Assembly (NCBI RefSeq): GCF_019278565.1
Contig: NZ_CP058988.1
Location: 2,170,001 to 2,234,000, forward strand
Origin: Cellulophaga sp. HaHa_2_95
Lineage (GTDB): Bacteria; Bacteroidota; Bacteroidia; Flavobacteriales; Flavobacteriaceae
Direction of reading: 5' to 3'
DNA length: 64,000 nucleotides
Positions within the stretch are counted from its first letter, which is position 1; each line of letters opens with the position of its first letter. Below are positions 51,083-58,353 of this stretch, piece by piece. The position numbers and the translations under genes are program-made. The notes below the pieces were generated by a model, which worked only from the letters and a program-made list of their open reading frames with translations, made no database searches and was not told the DNA's origin.

Positions 51083-52159
51083 TTAATGTTCCCCATAACC
51101 CACATCATCCATCTTACCTTTGAAAACTCTGTATTGGATCACCATATAAATGGCTACAAGCACGATTGCAATAACAAACCAATATATTCCTACCGAAAGA
51201 CCGTATTCGTCGGCAGCAACGTTGTAAATGGTTAAGCTAGGGTTTAGATTATTTGTTGATGGCAATACTTTCGGGAAAATTGAAGCTACCGTTGTGGTTA
51301 ATCCTCCAAATAAGAACGCGGTAGAAAATAAGAACCCTAATCCATCTTTCTTAAACTTTTTGACATTGAATAGCCCGAACAGTCCAATGAAAGTTAGCAC
51401 CGGGAAAATCCACAGCCAAGGGGTACTTAAGAAATTTTGAAAAGGTTTTGGTTCTATAATATGCCAAACAGATAAGGAGATAATGACCAACGCAAGTAAT
51501 ACAAAATTTAGTCTAAAAATAACAGACTTTAATTTTTCATTTAGATCAGAATTCGTTTTAAAAATAATCCAATTAGCTCCGTGAATAGTTAAGGAAACTA
51601 CCCCAATAATGCCGAGTAAAACGGTAAACCAATCCAAAATTCCCAAGTGCTCCGCTTGCGGACTAAATGTAGGATTCCATAGCGGCAGAAAAAAGTAATG
51701 AGCTTCTTGTGTTGAAACGCCTTCCGTTACAATACCTAAGTTTACGCCACGAACAATATTTCCTAGAGCAACCCCAAAAAATAAAGCTAAAAGTAAACTA
51801 GCTATTCCAAAGGCTTTATCCCAAATAGCTTCCCACATGGCATTATGTACTTGCCCCCTAAGTTCTAAACCAATAGCTCTAAAAATTAAGAGCCATAGTA
51901 TCATAATTAATGGCAAATAAAAGCCACTGAAAGAAGAAGCGTATAGCGTGGGGAAGGCAAAGAATAAAACACCTCCTGAAGCAATTAGCCATACTTCATT
52001 GGCGTCCCAGAAAGGGCCAATAGAATTTGTAATTGCTTTTTTGTCTTTCTCTGTTTTAGCAAAGAATAAATGGACAATACCGGCGCCAAAATCATAGCCA
52101 TCTAAGATAACATACACAGCAAGCATGGTCATTAAAACGATATACCAAAATAGTTCCAT
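51083..52159 (-). CDS. cydB: cytochrome bd ubiquinol oxidase subunit II
   Basis: 358 aa, eight or nine hydrophobic helices. N-terminal LDGYDFGAGIVHLFFAKT and NEVWLIASGGVLFFAFP are the family signatures. Partner of CydA in the quinol oxidase, which uses O2 at low concentration and resists sulfide and NO. Two bases separate it from cydA. Confidence 0.95.
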   Translation of the reverse strand: MELFWYIVLMTMLAVYVILDGYDFGAGIVHLFFAKTEKDKKAITNSIGPFWDANEVWLIASGGVLFFAFPTLYASSFSGFYLPLIMILWLLIFRAIGLELRGQVHNAMWEAIWDKAFGIASLLLALFFGVALGNIVRGVNLGIVTEGVSTQEAHYFFLPLWNPTFSPQAEHLGILDWFTVLLGIIGVVSLTIHGANWIIFKTNSDLNEKLKSVIFRLNFVLLALVIISLSVWHIIEPKPFQNFLSTPWLWIFPVLTFIGLFGLFNVKKFKKDGLGFLFSTAFLFGGLTTTVASIFPKVLPSTNNLNPSLTIYNVAADEYGLSVGIYWFVIAIVLVAIYMVIQYRVFKGKMDDVGYGEH

Positions 52160-52161
52160 AA

Positions 52162-53493
52162 TTAGTGTTTTACAAGTTGAGGTCCTTTATTAATAATTTT
52201 ACCCGCTAATATCAGAAATAGTAGACCAAGCAATAGATATAAGCCAACAAATCCTAAAAGCGTAAAAAGTGTATTTCCTGCAGATACTGTGGGAGAGGCT
52301 CCAGCACTTGTTCTAAGCAGATTAAACACTAACCAAGGCTGTCTGCCTAATTCTGCGGTATACCATCCCATAGTATTAGCGATATAAGGGAAAGGAAGGA
52401 GGAAGACTAAGGAATAAAGGATCCATTTTGTTTTGTATAATTTTTTTCTGAGTAATTGCACAATAGCAAAGAATAATAATCCTATAAATATAGTACCTAA
52501 ACCTACCATGATATGATAGGCATAATACAGCCCTGGTATGTTGGTTGGATGTACAGACTCATCAAATTCATTTAACCCTTTTATTTGCGCATCCCACTTT
52601 TGGTAGGTAAGAAAACTCAAGATATTTGGTACGGCAATTTTGTTATCTAATTTTTTTTCTACAATATTAGGTTGGCCAATTAAAACAATCTCAGAACCAC
52701 CGTCTTCGGTTTCAAAAATACCTTCCATTGCAGCAAAGGTTGCAGGTTGATATTTTACTACATTTTTCGCAACTAAATCTCCTGTAGGTACAGCAACTAA
52801 AACACTAGAAATAAAACCAAAAATTACTCCAGTTTTGACAAATAGCTTACCAAAAGTATGATGTTTATCATTTAATAAATAAAAGGCACCAATAGCCGCA
52901 ACTACAAATGAAGCGGTAACTAGAGAAGCTAATTGATTATGAAAATAAGAAGGGAGCAACCAGGGGTTGGAAAATAAGGCGCTAAAATTAGTCAACACAA
53001 ATTTTCCGTTTTCTAAAATTTCGAAACCAACGGGGTGTTGCATCCATGAATGCGTAGCAATAATTAAATAACCACTAGCCCAAGAACCTAGAAAGACCAA
53101 GAAACCTGTAACAAAATGTAGTTTATGACCTAATAACTTCTCTCCAAAAATAAATAAGCCTAAGAATGAAGATTCTAAGAAGAAAGAAAACATTCCTTCC
53201 ATAGCAAGTGTTTGCCCTATAATACCTCCCGTAAGTTCCGAGAATTTAGCCCAATTGGTGCCAAATTGAAATTCCATTGGAATACCCGTAACAACACCCA
53301 TGGCAAAATTTAAGGCAAAGATTTTCATCCAAAATTTAGCAGCATCATTATACATTTCTATCTTGTTGTACAGAAATTTTCCTTTGTAATACACAATTAG
53401 GAGTGATAATCCCATGGTTAATTGTGGGAATAAATAATGAAAAGTAATTGTAAAGGCAAATTGAATTCTATCGTAGAAAAGCATGTCTTCCAT
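52162..53493 (-). CDS. cydA: cytochrome bd ubiquinol oxidase subunit I
   Basis: 443 aa. RIQFAFTITFHYLFPQLTMGLSL contains the haem-ligating His19; GRQPWLVF and the quinol-binding loop follow. The overall length indicates the short Q-loop type. First gene of cydAB, with a palindromic operator and -7 element upstream. Confidence 0.95.
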   Translation of the reverse strand: MEDMLFYDRIQFAFTITFHYLFPQLTMGLSLLIVYYKGKFLYNKIEMYNDAAKFWMKIFALNFAMGVVTGIPMEFQFGTNWAKFSELTGGIIGQTLAMEGMFSFFLESSFLGLFIFGEKLLGHKLHFVTGFLVFLGSWASGYLIIATHSWMQHPVGFEILENGKFVLTNFSALFSNPWLLPSYFHNQLASLVTASFVVAAIGAFYLLNDKHHTFGKLFVKTGVIFGFISSVLVAVPTGDLVAKNVVKYQPATFAAMEGIFETEDGGSEIVLIGQPNIVEKKLDNKIAVPNILSFLTYQKWDAQIKGLNEFDESVHPTNIPGLYYAYHIMVGLGTIFIGLLFFAIVQLLRKKLYKTKWILYSLVFLLPFPYIANTMGWYTAELGRQPWLVFNLLRTSAGASPTVSAGNTLFTLLGFVGLYLLLGLLFLILAGKIINKGPQLVKH

Positions 53494-53526
53494 AAACTAT
53501 AATTTTAGAGATGGCGTATGATGCTA

Positions 53527-53570
53527 CAAAAATAACCATGAAAGTGTTTTTAGAGGGTAACATTAGTTAC
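53527..53570 (-). promoter_or_regulatory. cydAB promoter with GTAAC-N4-GTTAC operator
   Basis: TATTTTTG on the - strand (53534-53527) is a TAnnTTTG match. The palindrome GTAAC-ATTA-GTTAC (53557-53570) is centred 29.5 bp upstream of its first base, that is about -43 from the start: the position used by class II Crp/Fnr activators. Confidence 0.7.
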
Positions 53571-53613
53571 ATAATTATTTTATTTAACGTATTTGTAGAT
53601 TCTATTATCTTCT

Positions 53614-53657
53614 GTAACTTTTGTTACCAAATTCTACCTTAGAATTCAGTATTTTTA
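53614..53657 (+). promoter_or_regulatory. sulfite-oxidase promoter with GTAAC-N4-GTTAC operator
   Basis: GTAAC-TTTT-GTTAC (53614-53627) is centred 29.5 bp upstream of TATTTTTA (53650-53657), the same geometry as at cydA. The start codon is 25 bases further on. Confidence 0.65.
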
Positions 53658-53682
53658 GAAGCTTAAAGTTTGATGTGTTACC

Positions 53683-54903
53683 ATGGAAAGAAGAAAGTTT
53701 ATTAGTAGGTCATCTTTAGCAACCTTGACAGGGATTTTAGGAATGGATATTGTCTTTGGGAATTTGCTTCCAGATAATTACACCCCTTTAGAAATACAAG
53801 AAACAGATCCTTTTAAGTTGTTTAAATTAAATAAGGATATGCTGGTGCTAAATGATAAACCATGGAACATAGAAGCACAGGCCCATTTGCTCGATGATAA
53901 AGTTACACCGAACACCGCGATGTTTATTCGGAATAATGGAAAAATTCCGGAAGGCATAGATATTAATACATGGACATTATCTTTTGATGGAGAATCCATC
54001 AACCAAAAGAAAACATATACCTTAAGTGAGCTCAAAACTAAATTTAAGCACTATACCTATCAGCTTACCTTAGAGTGTGGAGGAAATGGGAGAAGCGAGT
54101 TCAACCCGCCAGCGAAAGGCAATCAGTGGACTATCGGTGCAGTTTCTTCTGCGAAATGGACGGGAATTCGTTTAAAAGATATTTTGGCTGAGGTAGGTGT
54201 AAAATCTGACGCAGTATATATTGGATATCACGCCGCAGATACCCATTTGAGTGGTGACCCTACTAAAGAACCTATTTCACGTGGGGTGCCCATCGCAAAA
54301 GCTTTACAAGAGGAAACTATCTTGGCTTTTCAAATGAATGGTGAAGATATTCCGGTAGCTCATGGATATCCTTTACGACTTATAGCTGGTGGATATCCTG
54401 CTTCTGCTTCGGGAAAATGGTTGAATAGAATTAGTGTTCGAAATATAGTACATGACGGAGAGAAAATGACAGGAATGTCATATAAAGTGCCAAAAAATCC
54501 TGTGGCACCAGGAGTAGAGGTTAAAGAAGAAGATATGCGTATTATAGAATCTATGCCCATAAAATCTTTGGTAACTTATCCTAAATCTGGAGCTACTTTT
54601 GGGATGGCTAAAAGTTTAGAAATTAGAGGTCATGCTTGGGCGGGGGAATTAAATGTTTCTAAAGTTGAATATTCTATCGATTTTGGAAGTACATGGAGCA
54701 CGTGTTCCTTAGAAAAGGAAGTAAACAGGTTTGCATGGCAGCATTTTTCTGCTAAAATAAAATTTCCGAAAAAAGGATATTATGAAGTTTGGGCAAAAGC
54801 AACCGATAGTAATGGTCACTCACAACCCATGCTTGTTCCAGGGTGGAATCCGAAAGGCTATTTAAATAATGCATGTCATAGAATTGCCGTAAAAGTTGTT
54901 TAA
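53683..54903 (+). CDS. sulfite-oxidase-like molybdopterin oxidoreductase
   Basis: 406 aa. N-terminal ERRKFISRSS with a hydrophobic stretch indicates Tat export. The molybdenum ligand is Cys132 in LECGGNGR; HGYPLRL and GGYPASASGKWL surround the cofactor. The C-terminal dimerisation domain (about 295-405) has the usual immunoglobulin-like pattern. Periplasmic oxidation of sulfite to sulfate, or a related S- or N-oxide reaction, passing electrons to the adjacent cytochrome. SorA or SoxC assignment is not possible by eye. Confidence 0.9.
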   Translation: MERRKFISRSSLATLTGILGMDIVFGNLLPDNYTPLEIQETDPFKLFKLNKDMLVLNDKPWNIEAQAHLLDDKVTPNTAMFIRNNGKIPEGIDINTWTLSFDGESINQKKTYTLSELKTKFKHYTYQLTLECGGNGRSEFNPPAKGNQWTIGAVSSAKWTGIRLKDILAEVGVKSDAVYIGYHAADTHLSGDPTKEPISRGVPIAKALQEETILAFQMNGEDIPVAHGYPLRLIAGGYPASASGKWLNRISVRNIVHDGEKMTGMSYKVPKNPVAPGVEVKEEDMRIIESMPIKSLVTYPKSGATFGMAKSLEIRGHAWAGELNVSKVEYSIDFGSTWSTCSLEKEVNRFAWQHFSAKIKFPKKGYYEVWAKATDSNGHSQPMLVPGWNPKGYLNNACHRIAVKVV

Positions 54904-55386
54904 ATGGGGGTAGAGGAAAAATTTAAACAAAGTGTTAAGGGTATTCATAGCTTATTAGCCATTCTTTTAATTGGTTTTATAGGCGTACTTGTAATTCTGT
55001 TTTTTATAATTAAGGATGCGGCTACTACTACGACCAATGCTCCAATTATAGCTCCTGATTATGTTGAGGTACCCGTCAATGAAGAAGATTTAGACAAGAT
55101 AGAAAATGGCATTCATGTGCGAACAGGTTTTGTAGAAGGTGAAGGTTTGATGTTGGTAGTGCAAAATTGTACTAGTTGTCACTCGGCTAAATTAGTGACA
55201 CAAAATAGAATGTCGAAAGAAAAATGGTTGGCGACAATTCGATGGATGCAAGAAACTCAGAATTTATGGGATTTAGGAGTAAATGAAGAACCTATTTTAA
55301 ATTATTTAAGTACCAACTATGCGCCTAATCAAATAGGACGTAGAGCTAATTTAACAAATATAGATTGGTATAAACTAGAAGAATAG
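54904..55386 (+). CDS. membrane-anchored monohaem cytochrome c
   Basis: 160 aa. One N-terminal membrane helix (about 15-37), a linker, then a single c-type haem site C89-T-S-C92-H93. It begins directly after the molybdoenzyme stop, which makes it the probable electron acceptor of that enzyme, comparable to SorB or SoxD. The distal ligand is not evident. Confidence 0.88.
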   Translation: MGVEEKFKQSVKGIHSLLAILLIGFIGVLVILFFIIKDAATTTTNAPIIAPDYVEVPVNEEDLDKIENGIHVRTGFVEGEGLMLVVQNCTSCHSAKLVTQNRMSKEKWLATIRWMQETQNLWDLGVNEEPILNYLSTNYAPNQIGRRANLTNIDWYKLEE

Positions 55387-55396
55387 AGCGATTAGA

Positions 55397-56275
55397 ATGA
55401 AAGAATATGTTGATGTTTTTATAAATGCGTTTATGGGCGCCTTGAATTGGACTTGGAAATCCATCATTTTTGAAGTGCCTTGGTATACTAATTATTTTTG
55501 GGGGTTAATTTTGATATCCTTAGTAGTATGGAGTTTGGAAATTGCATTTCCATGGCGAAAAAATCAGTCTATTTTCAGAAAAGATTTTTGGTTAGATGGT
55601 TTCTATATGTTTTTCAATTTCTTTCTTTTTGTGATTGCAATAAGTGGTTTTTATAAATTATTAGAAACGTTTTTTTCCCAATTAGGAATTAGTGAATCTA
55701 GTCTTACACTAATCGATTTTTCTTCTTGGCCTTCTTGGGCGCAATTGGTAATTTTCTTTATCATCTTAGATTTTGTGCAGTGGTTTACACATACATTGCT
55801 TCATAAATATGAATTTTTATGGAATTTTCATAAAGTTCATCATAGTGTAAAAGAAATGGGTTTTGCTGCGCATTTAAGATATCATTGGATGGAAAATATA
55901 GTTTACAAACCTTTAAAAACGTTTGGAGTGATGATCTTGGGTGGCTTTGAGCCAGAACAAGCTTATATTGTGCATTTTATAGCCATAACAATAGGGCACT
56001 TTAATCATTCTAATATAAAAATAACTTGGGGTCCTTTGAAGTATATCTTAAATAATCCAGTAATGCATTTATACCATCATGCATATGATTTACCCAAAGG
56101 TACCTATGGCGTAAACTTTGGTATAAGCTTAAGCATTTGGGATTATATTTTTAAAACAAATTATATCCCAGAAGATAGTGGTACAATTGAATTGGGATTT
56201 CATGGAGATGATACGTTTCCAAAGGATTTTATACATCAGAATATGGAAGGTTTTAAACCTTTTAAAAAACAATAA
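55397..56275 (+). CDS. fatty-acid hydroxylase/sterol desaturase family protein
   Basis: 292 aa membrane-bound di-iron enzyme family. Histidine clusters: HTLLH, HKVHH (in WNFHKVHHS) and HLYHH, with several hydrophobic segments. Would hydroxylate or desaturate a lipid. Its place 10 bases after the cytochrome suggests it is cotranscribed with the sulfite-oxidase pair, and the functional link is unexplained. Confidence 0.9.
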   Translation: MKEYVDVFINAFMGALNWTWKSIIFEVPWYTNYFWGLILISLVVWSLEIAFPWRKNQSIFRKDFWLDGFYMFFNFFLFVIAISGFYKLLETFFSQLGISESSLTLIDFSSWPSWAQLVIFFIILDFVQWFTHTLLHKYEFLWNFHKVHHSVKEMGFAAHLRYHWMENIVYKPLKTFGVMILGGFEPEQAYIVHFIAITIGHFNHSNIKITWGPLKYILNNPVMHLYHHAYDLPKGTYGVNFGISLSIWDYIFKTNYIPEDSGTIELGFHGDDTFPKDFIHQNMEGFKPFKKQ

Positions 56276-56309
56276 AAAATCCTTTGGTTCTAAAACCAAA
56301 GGATTTTTT
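56275..56309. terminator. terminator between convergent genes
   Basis: Stem AAAATCCTTTGGTT / AACCAAAGGATTTT (about 56276-56289 with 56294-56307), loop CTAA, flanked by A and T runs. Confidence 0.9.
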
Positions 56310-56330
56310 ATTAGCGCTACTATTATTGTA

Positions 56331-56948
56331 TTATTGTTCCTTAAAGTTGATACTCCAAATACCGCGTACTTCATTTGTTCCATAGCCTAAAGCCATGTCT
56401 TGTGGATAAAGGCTTCTGATTACCGCAAGTGTTTCTGGATTTACATCATTTTCTGTTCCGTGACATTGCAGACACATTGCATTGGTTATAATTGGATAAT
56501 AAAATTCAACCGTATCGCCCATATTTTCCTTTATAAGAGGAGCAGGGGTAATGCCATTGACGATATCTTGTTTAAAAGATTTAATATATTCCAATTCGGC
56601 GGCATTGGCTTTATTCGCTTGGTTTCTAGGTTTATCAGAGACTCTTTTGATAGTTGCCTTATGTTTCAACGCCATACTATCAGTAATTGGATATGCTTGA
56701 ATACTACAGAATCTTAAAGCTTCCAAAGTTCCTTTTTTTTGTATAGTGCCTATCAATTGTTTTCCTAAAACTTGTTGTGTGGTCTGGGCATATTCTAAGC
56801 CTATAACTTCCAGATTTTTTTGGTTTTGAGTAGTCTTATGCGTCGCGTTTTCAACCGCAGGAATCTGCTTAGTGGTGTTGGTTTTAGTTTCTGAATCTTT
56901 ACAACCAACTAAAACCAACAAAAGTAAAGAGGGGATTATGAATTTCAT
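56331..56948 (-). CDS. DUF3365 (Tll0287-like) haem lipoprotein
   Basis: 205 aa with lipoprotein signal ending in VLVGC (Cys16). A single c-type haem motif Cys159-L-Q-Cys162-His163 lies in the DUF3365 domain (LRFCSIQAYPIT; YYPI). This family is thought to bind a haem for redox or gas sensing. It is the last gene of the rhodanese-HMA group; its start overlaps the HMA stop by one base. Confidence 0.87.
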   Translation of the reverse strand: MKFIIPSLLLLVLVGCKDSETKTNTTKQIPAVENATHKTTQNQKNLEVIGLEYAQTTQQVLGKQLIGTIQKKGTLEALRFCSIQAYPITDSMALKHKATIKRVSDKPRNQANKANAAELEYIKSFKQDIVNGITPAPLIKENMGDTVEFYYPIITNAMCLQCHGTENDVNPETLAVIRSLYPQDMALGYGTNEVRGIWSINFKEQ

Positions 56949-57217
56949 TATGATGATATTTTACCTGTAGCACAACTTATGAACGATTTTGCTTTCGAAG
57001 CAAATGAATTTTCTTCATCTATAGATGGGTATCCAATAGCTTTGAGTTTATCATGAACTTTTAAAAGGTCTTCGTTACTCTTAGTAGAAAAAGATATGAT
57101 AGAATTGTCTATATCGATCTTAATATCAGAAACAGTATCAATTTCTGAAATTTTGTTCTTAATTGTATTGGCACAACCACCACATTTTAAATTCTGAACG
57201 GTAATAGAATTTTGCAT
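56948..57217 (-). CDS. heavy-metal-associated (HMA) domain protein
   Basis: 89 aa. Metal site CGGC in LKCGGCANTIKNKI, then the ferredoxin-like HMA fold; a further Cys sits near the C-terminus (SFISCATGK). Likely copper chaperone or sulfane-sulfur/metal handling protein. Six bases after the rhodanese gene. Confidence 0.88.
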   Translation of the reverse strand: MQNSITVQNLKCGGCANTIKNKISEIDTVSDIKIDIDNSIISFSTKSNEDLLKVHDKLKAIGYPSIDEENSFASKAKSFISCATGKISS

Positions 57218-57223
57218 AGTTCT

Positions 57224-57562
57224 TTATTTATAGGCCATATAGCCACCCTTTAAATCAATAATATCTGTAAAGCCCATTTTCGAAAGCTTATTCGCTGCTC
57301 TTTTACTCCGCATTCCAGATTGGCAGTAGATATATAGAGGCTCATCTTTTTTGAATTTATTGAAAGCATTTTCAAAGGCAGCGGAATTGAAAAAATCAAT
57401 ATTAATTGCTTTTTTAATAGCACCTCTAGAAAATTCGTTAGGGGTTCTAACATCAACAAGTTGAACATTTTTAACTGCAATTGCAGCTTTATATGTTGAA
57501 GCGTTTATAGTTTTAATAAATTCAGAATTTTTGTTTCCGAATAGAAAATTTAAGAATGACAT
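57224..57562 (-). CDS. single-domain rhodanese-like protein
   Basis: 112 aa rhodanese domain with persulfide-forming Cys80 in YCQSGMRSKRA and the CDC25-like VDVRTPNEFSRG. A sulfur carrier or transferase. The start at 57562 (MSFLNFLFGN) gives the usual N-terminus; the frame stays open to an ATG at 57649, so an N-terminally longer form is possible. Heads the operon with the HMA and DUF3365 genes. A terminator-like hairpin lies immediately upstream. Confidence 0.87.
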   Translation of the reverse strand: MSFLNFLFGNKNSEFIKTINASTYKAAIAVKNVQLVDVRTPNEFSRGAIKKAINIDFFNSAAFENAFNKFKKDEPLYIYCQSGMRSKRAANKLSKMGFTDIIDLKGGYMAYK

Positions 57563-57574
57563 AATAGTATATTT

Positions 57575-57619
57575 TTTTAAAAAAATGGAAGTAGTCACAA
57601 CCACATCACTACTTCCATT
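57575..57619 (-). terminator. terminator-like hairpin before the rhodanese gene
   Basis: Perfect 12-base inverted repeat AATGGAAGTAGT / ACTACTTCCATT (57584-57595 with 57608-57619) followed on the - strand by TTTTTTT. It ends 17 bases before the rhodanese start codon. It may end the regulator transcript or act as an attenuator in the rhodanese leader. Confidence 0.8.
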
Positions 57620-57671
57620 GAAACAACCAACTAATAAACTATATGCCATTAAAGGCTCTAATTTATTACTG

Positions 57672-57715
57672 TAAAATTACAGTTTGTTAGTATCATTAAA
57701 AGTAACCTAGGTTAC
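57672..57715 (-). promoter_or_regulatory. rhodanese-operon promoter with GTAAC-N4-GTTAC operator
   Basis: GTAAC-CTAG-GTTAC (57702-57715) is centred 29.5 bp upstream of TAATTTTA (57679-57672, - strand), the geometry seen at cydA and the sulfite-oxidase gene. ACTGTAA-AA-TTACAGT (57668-57683) is a second palindrome over the -7 element. Confidence 0.65.
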
Positions 57716-57720
57716 ATAGG

Positions 57721-58353
57721 CTATAAATTAATTGCTTTTATGTAATTACGATGCAATTCTATTTTTCCTAATTCTTCCAATTTCTTTAGTAATCTAGAAA
57801 TGACCACTCTTGAGCTATGTAAGTCATACGCTATCTGTTGGTGTGTATTATGAATGGTCCTGTCATTGGTAATCCTTATTTTTTCTTTTAAGTAACCTAG
57901 TAAACGCTCATCCATATTTTGAAAAGCAATAGAATCTACGGTATTTAAGAGCTCTGTTAATCTATTATGGTAGCTTTCGAAAACAAAGTTTCTCCAGGAC
58001 TTATATTTGGCCGTCCATTCTTCCATTTTTTGAACAGGAACCATAATCAATTTTGTTTCTGTTTCGGCGATGGCTCTAATTTCACTGATAGACTGAGATA
58101 AGCAGCAACTCAATGTCATAGAACAGGTATCTCCTTTTTCTAAATAATATAATAAGAGTTCATCACCATCTTTATCTTCTCTTAAAATTTTTATAGCGCC
58201 AGAAATTAGTAAAGGCATGCTTTTGATGTATTCACCAATCTCAATTAATTTAAACCCTTCGGGTACTTCTTTGAATGTTCCTACTTGAACAATTTCTTCT
58301 ATTAGTTCTTTTTCAAATATAGTTCCGTAATTATCTATTAAATCTTTTATCAT
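57721..58353 (-). CDS. Crp/Fnr family transcriptional regulator
   Basis: 210 aa. N-terminal cyclic-nucleotide-binding-like barrel, a cysteine cluster Cys77, Cys83, Cys84 (DTCSMTLSCCLS), dimerisation helix, and C-terminal HTH with recognition helix SSRVVISRLLKKLEELG. The start at 58353 is chosen over 58446, which adds an unrelated hydrophobic extension. Not a classic Fnr: the N-terminal iron-sulfur cysteines are missing. Its stop lies 5 bases from a GTAAC-N4-GTTAC palindrome. Probable regulator of the rhodanese, cyd and sulfite-oxidase units. Confidence 0.9.
   Translation of the reverse strand: MIKDLIDNYGTIFEKELIEEIVQVGTFKEVPEGFKLIEIGEYIKSMPLLISGAIKILREDKDGDELLLYYLEKGDTCSMTLSCCLSQSISEIRAIAETETKLIMVPVQKMEEWTAKYKSWRNFVFESYHNRLTELLNTVDSIAFQNMDERLLGYLKEKIRITNDRTIHNTHQQIAYDLHSSRVVISRLLKKLEELGKIELHRNYIKAINL

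What the first reader, a model, noticed from the sequence alone, without database searches (positions are those of the whole stretch)
53527..58353. Three promoters share a GTAAC-N4-GTTAC palindrome at identical spacing: a candidate Crp/Fnr regulon
The palindrome GTAAC-N4-GTTAC occurs at 53557-53570, 53614-53627 and 57702-57715 with different central bases (ATTA, TTTT, CTAG). In each case its centre is exactly 29.5 bp upstream of the first base of a -7-like element (TATTTTTG, TATTTTTA, TAATTTTA), placing it near -43. Constant spacing with a variable centre is what a class II activator site looks like. The controlled units are cydAB, the sulfite-oxidase operon and the rhodanese-HMA-haem lipoprotein operon, and a Crp/Fnr gene with a Cys77/Cys83/Cys84 cluster adjoins one site. 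The set suggests a response to sulfide, sulfite or reactive sulfur, or low O2/NO.
Basis: partly seen in the sequence, partly recalled or inferred. Interest (0 to 1): 0.8.

Follow-up and report, generated by a model that had tools for sequence, protein, structure and literature searches.

The report
Sulfide-detoxification regulon of marine flavobacteria
A short DNA palindrome placed at one exact distance before many promoters appears to be the switch by which a cysteine-bearing Crp/Fnr protein turns on sulfide and persulfide disposal genes in flavobacteria and some of their relatives.

Summary
The three palindromes are real, and the fixed spacing to the -7 box is real far beyond the window. In 199 family genomes the full motif occurs 400 times, against 6 for the reversed control. 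Around 80 orthologues of the neighbouring Crp/Fnr gene, 193 palindrome-box pairs sit at gap 22 and 0-4 at any other gap. Motif and gene co-occur: 103 of 108 genomes with a close orthologue, 6 of 46 with none or a remote one. With the flavobacterial sigma-A box at -12..-5 (PMC9723704), the centre is at -41.5, the class II position. The genes behind it are largely the sulfide/persulfide route (SQR, CstB-like dioxygenase-rhodanese, rhodanese, sulfite oxidase, TauE, YeeE, SulP), plus cydAB, Prx, Dps and an RND pump. A different palindrome marks cbb3-oxidase and usp genes, so the low-O2 reading is weak. The signal (probably sulfane sulfur on Cys77/83/84) is inferred. I found no binding or expression data, and no description in the library searched.

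The parts
57721..58353 (-). Crp/Fnr-family regulator, 210 aa, Cys77/Cys83/Cys84; proposed activator of the regulon
   Evidence: PF00027 2.4e-7, PF13545 5.8e-6; CRP/FNR fold; the three Cys in 80 of 80 closest orthologues and 19 of 20 distant ones
57702..57715 (.). Activator site GTAACCTAGGTTAC, 5 bases past the crp stop codon
   Evidence: palindrome within 200 bp 3' of crp in 58 of 80 orthologous loci
57672..57679 (-). -7 box TAATTTTA of the rhodanese operon; predicted +1 at 57667
   Evidence: -12..-5 convention from PMC9723704
57584..57619 (-). 12-bp hairpin followed by T7 inside the 102-nt rhodanese leader: candidate attenuator, small-RNA end or crp terminator
   Evidence: leader fold -28 kcal/mol, z -4.07; present in L097 and L098
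57224..57565 (-). Single-domain rhodanese, 113 aa
   Evidence: PF00581 1.9e-20; the longer start at 57649 is not kept in L097
56948..57217 (-). HMA metal-binding domain protein
   Evidence: PF00403 1.2e-10
56331..56948 (-). Lipoprotein with Tll0287-like domain
   Evidence: PF11845 4e-22
53614..53627 (.). Activator site GTAACTTTTGTTAC of the sulfite-oxidase operon
53650..53657 (+). -7 box TATTTTTA; predicted +1 at 53662
53683..54903 (+). Molybdenum sulfite oxidase
   Evidence: PF00174 1.7e-48; PDB sulfite oxidase 4.3e-51
54904..55386 (+). Membrane-anchored protein with one CxxCH-type haem motif; presumed electron acceptor
   Evidence: no Pfam hit; motif read from the translation
55397..56275 (+). 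Fatty-acid-hydroxylase superfamily membrane protein; homologues directly follow a site in 10 of 193 linked cases
   Evidence: PF04116 3.5e-25
53557..53570 (.). Activator site GTAACTAATGTTAC (read on -) of cydAB, divergent from the sulfite-oxidase site, centres 57 bp apart
53527..53534 (-). -7 box TATTTTTG of cydAB; predicted +1 at 53522
52162..53493 (-). cydA, cytochrome bd oxidase subunit I
   Evidence: PF01654 5.9e-141
51083..52159 (-). cydB, cytochrome bd oxidase subunit II
   Evidence: PF02322 1.1e-78

Best explanation
The Crp/Fnr protein at 57721-58353 is a class II transcription activator. As a dimer it binds GTRAC-N4-GTYAC centred at -41.5, overlapping the -33 region, and recruits sigma-A RNA polymerase to a TAnnTTTG box. 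Its regulon is the cell's sulfide and persulfide disposal route: SQR makes persulfide; CstB-like dioxygenase-rhodaneses and rhodanese turn it into sulfite and thiosulfate; sulfite oxidase, TauE, YeeE and SulP remove the products; cytochrome bd keeps respiration going under sulfide; Prx, Dps and an RND pump deal with side damage. The inducer is most likely sulfane sulfur (persulfide or polysulfide), read by Cys77, Cys83 and Cys84 in a loop that in Crp holds cyclic AMP. Shown computationally: site, spacing, family-wide conservation, linkage to this regulator, and gene content. Inferred: direct binding, activation rather than repression, the inducer, the cysteine chemistry, and the roles of the single enzymes (taken from their families).
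For: Fixed gap: 193 pairs at N22, 0-4 at any other gap 0-59; five control palindromes occur 0-7 times against 234. Family scan 400 against 6 reversed. Unprompted scan of perfect 5-N4-5 palindromes with a box at gap 22: GTAAC 193, next ATGAC and ATGAT 11 each. Regulator linkage: 103/108 (orthologue E below 1e-76) against 6/46 (none, or E above 1e-50), Fisher 6e-25; the 45 genomes between have it in 29; 95/99 against 4/20 in genomes of 2.5 Mb or more; palindrome within 200 bp 3' of crp in 58/80. Recognition helix SRVVISRLL aligns with NtcA STRVTVTRLL; NtcA binds GTAN8TAC at -41.5 (PMC3898017, passages), which GTAAC-N4-GTTAC satisfies. Gene content: first genes are sulfur-route in 123/193 linked and 51/94 sampled sites; 0/114 ORFs in parE loci. 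The own SQR-like protein has cysteines at three positions aligned with cysteines of a solved SQR, the third in a weak second stretch. Cys77/83/84 in 80/80 closest and 19/20 distant orthologues; loop 79-88 is the only stretch of three or more residues with pLDDT under 50. Separate low-O2-type palindrome.
Against: No expression, binding or inducer data were found. Sites upstream of individual orthologues are conserved only in part. Not all targets are sulfur genes: Dps, RND pump, DUF983, fatty-acid hydroxylase, di-haem peroxidase; in the genome-wide sample 20 of 94 first genes are unlabelled. At two mismatches the own-genome pattern is no more frequent than its reverse. One orthologue has Glu183 instead of Val yet keeps GTAAC sites, so the helix argument is not strict. 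One paralogue (L240) lacks Cys83 and Cys84 but lies beside YeeE and a perfect palindrome. In the linked set, target genes lie in a sulfur gene cluster (254 of 1444 ORFs carry the labels). One out-of-family site precedes a hybrid-cluster-protein gene, a nitrosative-stress type (role recalled).
Confidence: 0.78

Rival explanations
1. Same regulator and regulon, but the inducer is not persulfide: sulfite, thiosulfate, peroxide or general thiol stress, or a bound metabolite.
For: Prx, Dps, di-haem peroxidase and an RND pump are among the targets; sulfite oxidase, TauE and SulP handle sulfite and sulfate.
Against: The commonest targets are a persulfide-dioxygenase type and TauE (CstB-like 40 and TauE 34 of 193). 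Three strictly kept cysteines are expected for a thiol-reactive signal.
Confidence: 0.3
2. It is the low-oxygen or NO regulator of the family (FNR, Dnr or HcpR type), and cydAB is the key target.
For: cydAB is a target; one out-of-family site precedes a hybrid-cluster-protein gene (L370, PF03063 3e-176).
Against: No FNR-type cysteine cluster in this protein. In the same loci ATGAY-N4-RTCAT at the same gap precedes cbb3-oxidase (FixS, and COX1-FixO behind it), Usp, radical-SAM and S30AE genes; in this genome it precedes an FNR homologue with a CEQC motif and a usp gene (2 of 4 sites). I noticed no nor, nos or cbb3 gene among the first genes printed or labelled.
Confidence: 0.08
3. The palindrome is bound by another regulator, and the Crp/Fnr gene is only a passenger of the same gene cluster.
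For: Site and regulator were linked by association only.
Against: In this genome the sites lie at places from 1.32 to 3.47 Mb, not only beside crp, and presence of the gene goes with the genome-wide count (Spearman 0.74). Geometry and site match class II Crp/Fnr binding and NtcA in particular. Sites precede crp itself in 12 of 193 linked cases.
Confidence: 0.05
4. The sites repress: the dimer sits on the -33 region and blocks polymerase until sulfane sulfur releases it, as in CstR and SqrR systems.
For: The right half-site lies where a -33 element would be (-33 position recalled).
Against: Centre at -41.5 with a rigid single spacing is the class II activator position (PMC3898017, passages); a repressor would not need one exact distance.
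Confidence: 0.08

Closest known systems
NtcA of cyanobacteria (Crp/Fnr family)
   Same: Site GTAN8TAC centred at -41.5 with a -10-type box (PMC3898017, passages); recognition helix RVxx[ST]RLL.
   Different: NtcA answers 2-oxoglutarate and governs nitrogen (same passages); NtcA model score 38.4 against a cut-off of 244.95; targets here are largely sulfur genes.
CstR/cst operon of Staphylococcus and FisR, SqrR, BigR systems
   Same: Same target logic (recalled for CstR): TauE, CstB-type dioxygenase-rhodanese, SQR; cysteine-bearing regulator. FisR has three conserved cysteines (PMC9774590, passages). The CstB-like gene matches PDB 3r2u at 3.9e-52 (that 3r2u is the staphylococcal protein is recalled).
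   Different: Those regulators are of other families (recalled: CsoR, ArsR, sigma-54 activator); CstR and SqrR are repressors (recalled); I know of none that uses this site.
FNR of E. coli and the FNR homologue of this genome (L385)
   Same: Crp/Fnr fold and class II spacing.
   Different: This protein has no N-terminal cysteine cluster; the FNR homologue has its own ATGAY palindrome.
Crp of Acinetobacter baumannii
   Same: Crp-type regulator found persulfidated in sulfide-exposed cells, at a Cys opposite the ligand pocket (PMC7315123, passages).
   Different: No effect on its function was shown in the passages seen; it is 50% identical to E. coli Crp.
HcpR and a second Crp/Fnr protein of Porphyromonas gingivalis
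   Different: Only 14-17% identity over the model; no GTAAC site or sulfur regulon is known to me (recalled).

Membership tests
Crp/Fnr superfamily | cNMP-binding-type sensor domain | tested here: met
   PF00027 31.1 bits, cut-off 27.5
Crp/Fnr superfamily | C-terminal Crp-type helix-turn-helix | tested here: met
Crp/Fnr superfamily | Palindromic target at a fixed promoter position | tested here: met
   193 pairs at one gap; position -41.5 from PMC9723704; binding itself not tested
FNR (oxygen sensor) | Four Fe-S cysteines, three of them N-terminal (recalled) | tested here: not met
   only Cys77, 83, 84 are present
FNR (oxygen sensor) | FNR-type TTGAT-N4-ATCAA site (recalled) | tested here: not met
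   site is GTAAC-N4-GTTAC; the ATGAY site precedes other genes
cAMP-CRP | NCBI equivalog model for CRP | tested here: not met
   50.1 bits against 266
NtcA | GTAN8TAC site at about -41.5 | tested here: met
NtcA | NCBI equivalog model for NtcA | tested here: not met
   38.4 bits against 244.95
NtcA | 2-oxoglutarate response | not testable with these tools
   needs protein
Sulfane-sulfur-responsive regulators (works like) | Controls persulfide dioxygenase, SQR and sulfurtransferase genes | tested here: met
   by sites in front of them only:
Sulfane-sulfur-responsive regulators (works like) | Conserved reactive cysteines | tested here: inconclusive
   conserved (80 of 80; 19 of 20); reactivity not tested
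Sulfane-sulfur-responsive regulators (works like) | Persulfide or polysulfide changes DNA binding | not testable with these tools
   needs protein

The most novel reading that the evidence does not exclude
A master regulator of sulfide and persulfide metabolism, spread through the class Bacteroidia, that is a Crp/Fnr activator: the cyclic-nucleotide cassette has become a Cys-x5-Cys-Cys loop that senses sulfane sulfur by persulfide or polysulfide bridging, and an NtcA-like recognition helix and site were combined with Bacteroidota promoter geometry. It would be a Crp/Fnr-type sulfane-sulfur sensor with a defined regulon.
Probability: 0.5. Interest if true: 0.82.

Novelty: new variant of a known kind. 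Interest (0 to 1): 0.7.

Why it matters
Flavobacteriaceae are a major component of marine, soil and freshwater ecosystems (PMC9723704, abstract), and few of their transcription factors have a known site or regulon (recalled). This gives a consensus, an exact promoter geometry, a candidate regulator and a target list that can be tested with one deletion strain, and it predicts how these heterotrophs take part in sulfide oxidation. It would add the Crp/Fnr fold to the families that sense reactive sulfur. It also suggests that at least two Crp/Fnr systems in the group (GTAAC for sulfur, ATGAY for low oxygen) share one geometry, so a scan for palindromes at this one distance could map further regulons in the phylum.

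Tried and rejected
Palindrome count as evidence: rejected, because 12 palindromes against 10 for the reversed control is no enrichment; at two mismatches the full pattern gives 19 against 23 reversed. Only the exact palindrome at the exact gap carries the signal. Low-O2/NO reading: weakened. The ATGAY set is itself mixed: 33 sites, among them two before Prx homologues and several before genes that I could not place; in the own genome 4 sites, one before an FNR homologue, one before a usp gene, one before a DnaJ-like gene and one with no gene in reach. Strict helix-to-site rule (Val183 needed): not upheld, L128 has Glu183 and GTAAC sites. Genomes with a close Crp/Fnr orthologue but no strict motif (5 of 108): four of the five (L247, L248, L250, L251) have a near site beside crp or before the next sulfur gene (one mismatch, gap 21 or 23, or a perfect palindrome with a variant box); none was found for L249. 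Rfam for the leader hairpin: one chance match only. The terminator scan did not flag the hairpin, probably because its loop, with the inner pairs, is longer than the scan allows. Literature: (listings) showed no paper on a Crp/Fnr regulator of sulfide or persulfide genes in Bacteroidota; the library holds open-licence papers only. F. psychrophilum transcriptome paper (PMC9723704): outline, abstract and passages seen; the words crp, gtaac and palindrom do not occur in its main text; its supplement was not read. PMC7315123, PMC9774590 and PMC3898017: passages only.

Sampling limits: the 80 orthologous loci are the best 80 of 585 confirmed. The 94 genome-wide sites come from loci L038-L066 plus 60 stretches that I picked from the listing, which itself did not list all 400 matches; some of them are crp-linked too; sites too near a stretch end with no gene in reach and duplicate sites were dropped before the count. 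Of 32 out-of-family sites listed, I fetched 29. In one search the CstB-like and parE sets are the 30 best-scoring matches, not all. The logo uses 192 of 193 sites and is fixed by construction at the pattern's own letters. The thresholds 1e-76 and 1e-50 were chosen after the E-values had been seen. Gene starts are mechanical; ORFs that began before the box were trimmed to the first Met after it. Gene labels are best BLAST hits to 28 reference proteins, not curated; the reference of the DUF983-like label has no Pfam hit itself, but another member does (L099). Split by the Crp/Fnr gene (by hand), the sulfite-oxidase promoters have a site in 5 of 10 other genomes with an orthologue at E below 1e-76 and in 0 of 5 with none or a more distant one.
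Full report
WHAT IS IN THE WINDOW. GTAAC-N4-GTTAC occurs three times in 64 kb, at the stated coordinates, with 0.01 expected in shuffles. Each is followed, in the direction of a gene, by a Bacteroidota -7 box after exactly 22 bases. The units are cydAB, a sulfite-oxidase operon (sulfite oxidase, a CxxCH protein and a fatty-acid-hydroxylase-type membrane protein) and rhodanese-HMA-Tll0287. The window is G000:C1:2170001-2234000 of a 4.54-Mb genome; its regulator is 99% identical to that of Cellulophaga baltica DSM 24729.

OUT-OF-SAMPLE TEST IN THE SAME GENOME. The genome has 12 such palindromes, hardly more than the reversed control (10). With two mismatches allowed the pattern loses its edge (19 against 23 reversed). 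The six new promoters belong to Dps, a SulP permease, an MBL-rhodanese-rhodanese protein, an SQR-like flavoprotein, a TolC-MFP-RND operon and a 1-Cys peroxiredoxin followed by a second MBL-rhodanese. A tenth palindrome (L016:10355) has a box one base off consensus just upstream of a 125-aa ORF and a TonB receptor gene. Two are inside coding regions. Among one-mismatch sites, one precedes a DUF983 gene, a type that recurs in relatives.

FAMILY AND CLASS. The full pattern is found in 138 of 199 family genomes, 400 times against 6 for the reversed pattern. In a phylum draw it is in 39 of 395 genomes, 37 of them in the same class; the two outside it (G272, G565) have one site each. Outside the family, 29 of the 32 listed sites were read. 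Nineteen precede TauE, CstB-like, second MBL-rhodanese, SQR, YeeE, SulP, TolC, rhodanese, DUF983, Tll0287 or cydA homologues; 8 precede genes without such a label and 2 have no gene in reach. Of the 8, one is another TauE, one a thioredoxin and one a hybrid-cluster protein.

THE SPACING IS RIGID. Around 80 orthologues of the Crp/Fnr gene (collected by protein, not by motif) there are 234 palindromes; 193 pairs have a box at gap 22 and 0-4 at each other gap from 0 to 59. Five control palindromes occur 0-7 times. A scan that did not name the sequence, for any perfect 5-N4-5 palindrome with a box at gap 22, returned GTAAC 193, ATGAC 11, ATGAT 11 and GTGAC 8. The flavobacterial sigma-A box lies at -12 to -5 (PMC9723704, passages), so the centre is at -41.5. 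The base before the palindrome is T in 92%, and the two bases after it are T and G in about 60% each, 20 bases before the box, where a -33 element would lie (the -33 reading is recalled knowledge).

THE REGULATOR. Motif and regulator co-occur: 103 of 108 genomes with an orthologue at E below 1e-76, against 6 of 46 with none or only E above 1e-50 (Fisher 6e-25); in the 45 genomes between, 29 have the motif. The contrast holds in genomes of 2.5 Mb or more: 95 of 99 against 4 of 20. In 58 of 80 loci a palindrome lies within 200 bp after the crp stop; the commonest offset is 8, and here it is 6. In 12 of 193 cases the first gene is crp itself. The recognition helix SRVV[IV]SRLL aligns with NtcA; NtcA binds GTAN8TAC at -41.5 (PMC3898017, passages), and the present palindrome is a special case of that site. 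Cys77, Cys83 and Cys84 are kept in 30 of 30 and 80 of 80 close orthologues and in 19 of 20 at 46-60% identity, the exception being L240. In the model, residues 79-88 are the only stretch of three or more with pLDDT below 50; by alignment this is the place of the cyclic-nucleotide cassette of Crp (inference; the cassette's position is recalled).

WHAT THE GENES DO. First genes at linked sites (193): CstB-like 40, TauE 34, DUF983-like 16, rhodanese 13, SQR (mitochondrial-SQOR type) 13, crp 12, fatty-acid hydroxylase 10, Prx 9, SulP 8, DUF2892-like 5, TolC 5, cydA 4, sulfite oxidase 4, Tll0287 4, YeeE 3, second MBL-rhodanese 2, HMA 2, DsrE 1, other 2, none 6. In 94 sampled genome-wide sites: CstB-like 17, TolC 13, TauE 9, rhodanese 6, SQR 6, SulP 5, Prx 4, DUF2892-like 4, sulfite oxidase 4, others 26, of which 20 are unlabelled and one has no gene. 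Sulfur-route share 123 of 193 and 51 of 94, against 0 of 114 ORFs around parE and 254 of 1444 ORFs in the crp loci as a whole. The own SQR-like protein has cysteines aligned with three of a solved SQR, the third in a weak second stretch (their catalytic role is recalled). The SQR of relatives matches mitochondrial SQOR at 1e-98. The CstB-like protein matches PDB 3r2u at 3.9e-52 over nearly its whole length; its best hit is 3tp9, a lactamase-rhodanese protein, 1.4e-68 (that 3r2u is the staphylococcal protein is recalled).

WHY NOT OXYGEN. In the same loci ATGAY-N4-RTCAT at the same gap (33 sites) precedes, among others, FixS and a COX1-FixO gene of cbb3 oxidase, Usp, a radical-SAM protein that I read as HemN, and an S30AE ribosome-hibernation protein. 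In the own genome it precedes an FNR homologue with CEQC and a usp gene (2 of 4 sites). The low-oxygen system is therefore probably separate, with its own site. The set is not pure: two of the 33 precede Prx homologues.

WEAK POINTS. Promoters of individual orthologues keep the site only in part (cydA 7 of 16 rows, sulfite oxidase 6 of 16, CstB-like 11 of 30, SQR 5 of 13; parE 0 of 30). Some of these genes may be internal to operons, which I did not resolve. The inducer and the cysteine mechanism are inference. A persulfidated Crp in Acinetobacter (PMC7315123, passages) is a precedent for the chemistry only. The review of bacterial sulfur sensing that I searched names FisR, OxyR, LasR and OhrR in the passages seen; the word fnr does not occur in it and crp only in its reference list (PMC9774590, passages).

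VERDICT. The family of the regulator (Crp/Fnr) is known; the site, regulon and probable signal of this branch are, as far as the searches show, undescribed.

Noticed in passing
window 57584-57619 (-), leader of the rhodanese operon: A 12-bp hairpin with a T7 tail lies between the activator-dependent promoter and the rhodanese start (leader fold z -4.07). It is kept in L097 and L098 with a conserved upstream stretch: attenuator, about 85-nt small RNA, or terminator of crp.
   Followed up: partly
L385:779-1501 (-), L384, and loci L097-L176: A second palindrome, ATGAY-N4-RTCAT, at the same gap of 22 precedes an FNR homologue and a usp gene here and, in relatives, cbb3-oxidase, usp and other genes: probably the FNR regulon of the group.
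   Followed up: partly
L099-L103, L105, L108: GTGAC-N4-GTCAC at gap 22 precedes the CstB-like gene in 7 of 8 cases: a variant of the same site.
   Followed up: partly
L015:7134-12893: A TolC-MFP-RND efflux operon carries the site here; TolC homologues follow 13 of 94 sampled sites and two sites outside the family. What it exports is unknown.
   Followed up: no
L028:1081-1482, L099:9605-9991: DUF983 proteins are regular members of the set (16 of 193 linked sites carry a DUF983-like label); function unknown.
   Followed up: no
L015:3265-4764: Three methionine-sulfoxide-reductase-like genes (msrB, msrA, msrA, named by eye from sequence) lie divergent to the SQR-like gene.
   Followed up: no
L240: A Crp/Fnr paralogue that has lost Cys83 and Cys84 but still lies beside YeeE and a perfect palindrome: a natural test of the cysteine model.
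   Followed up: no
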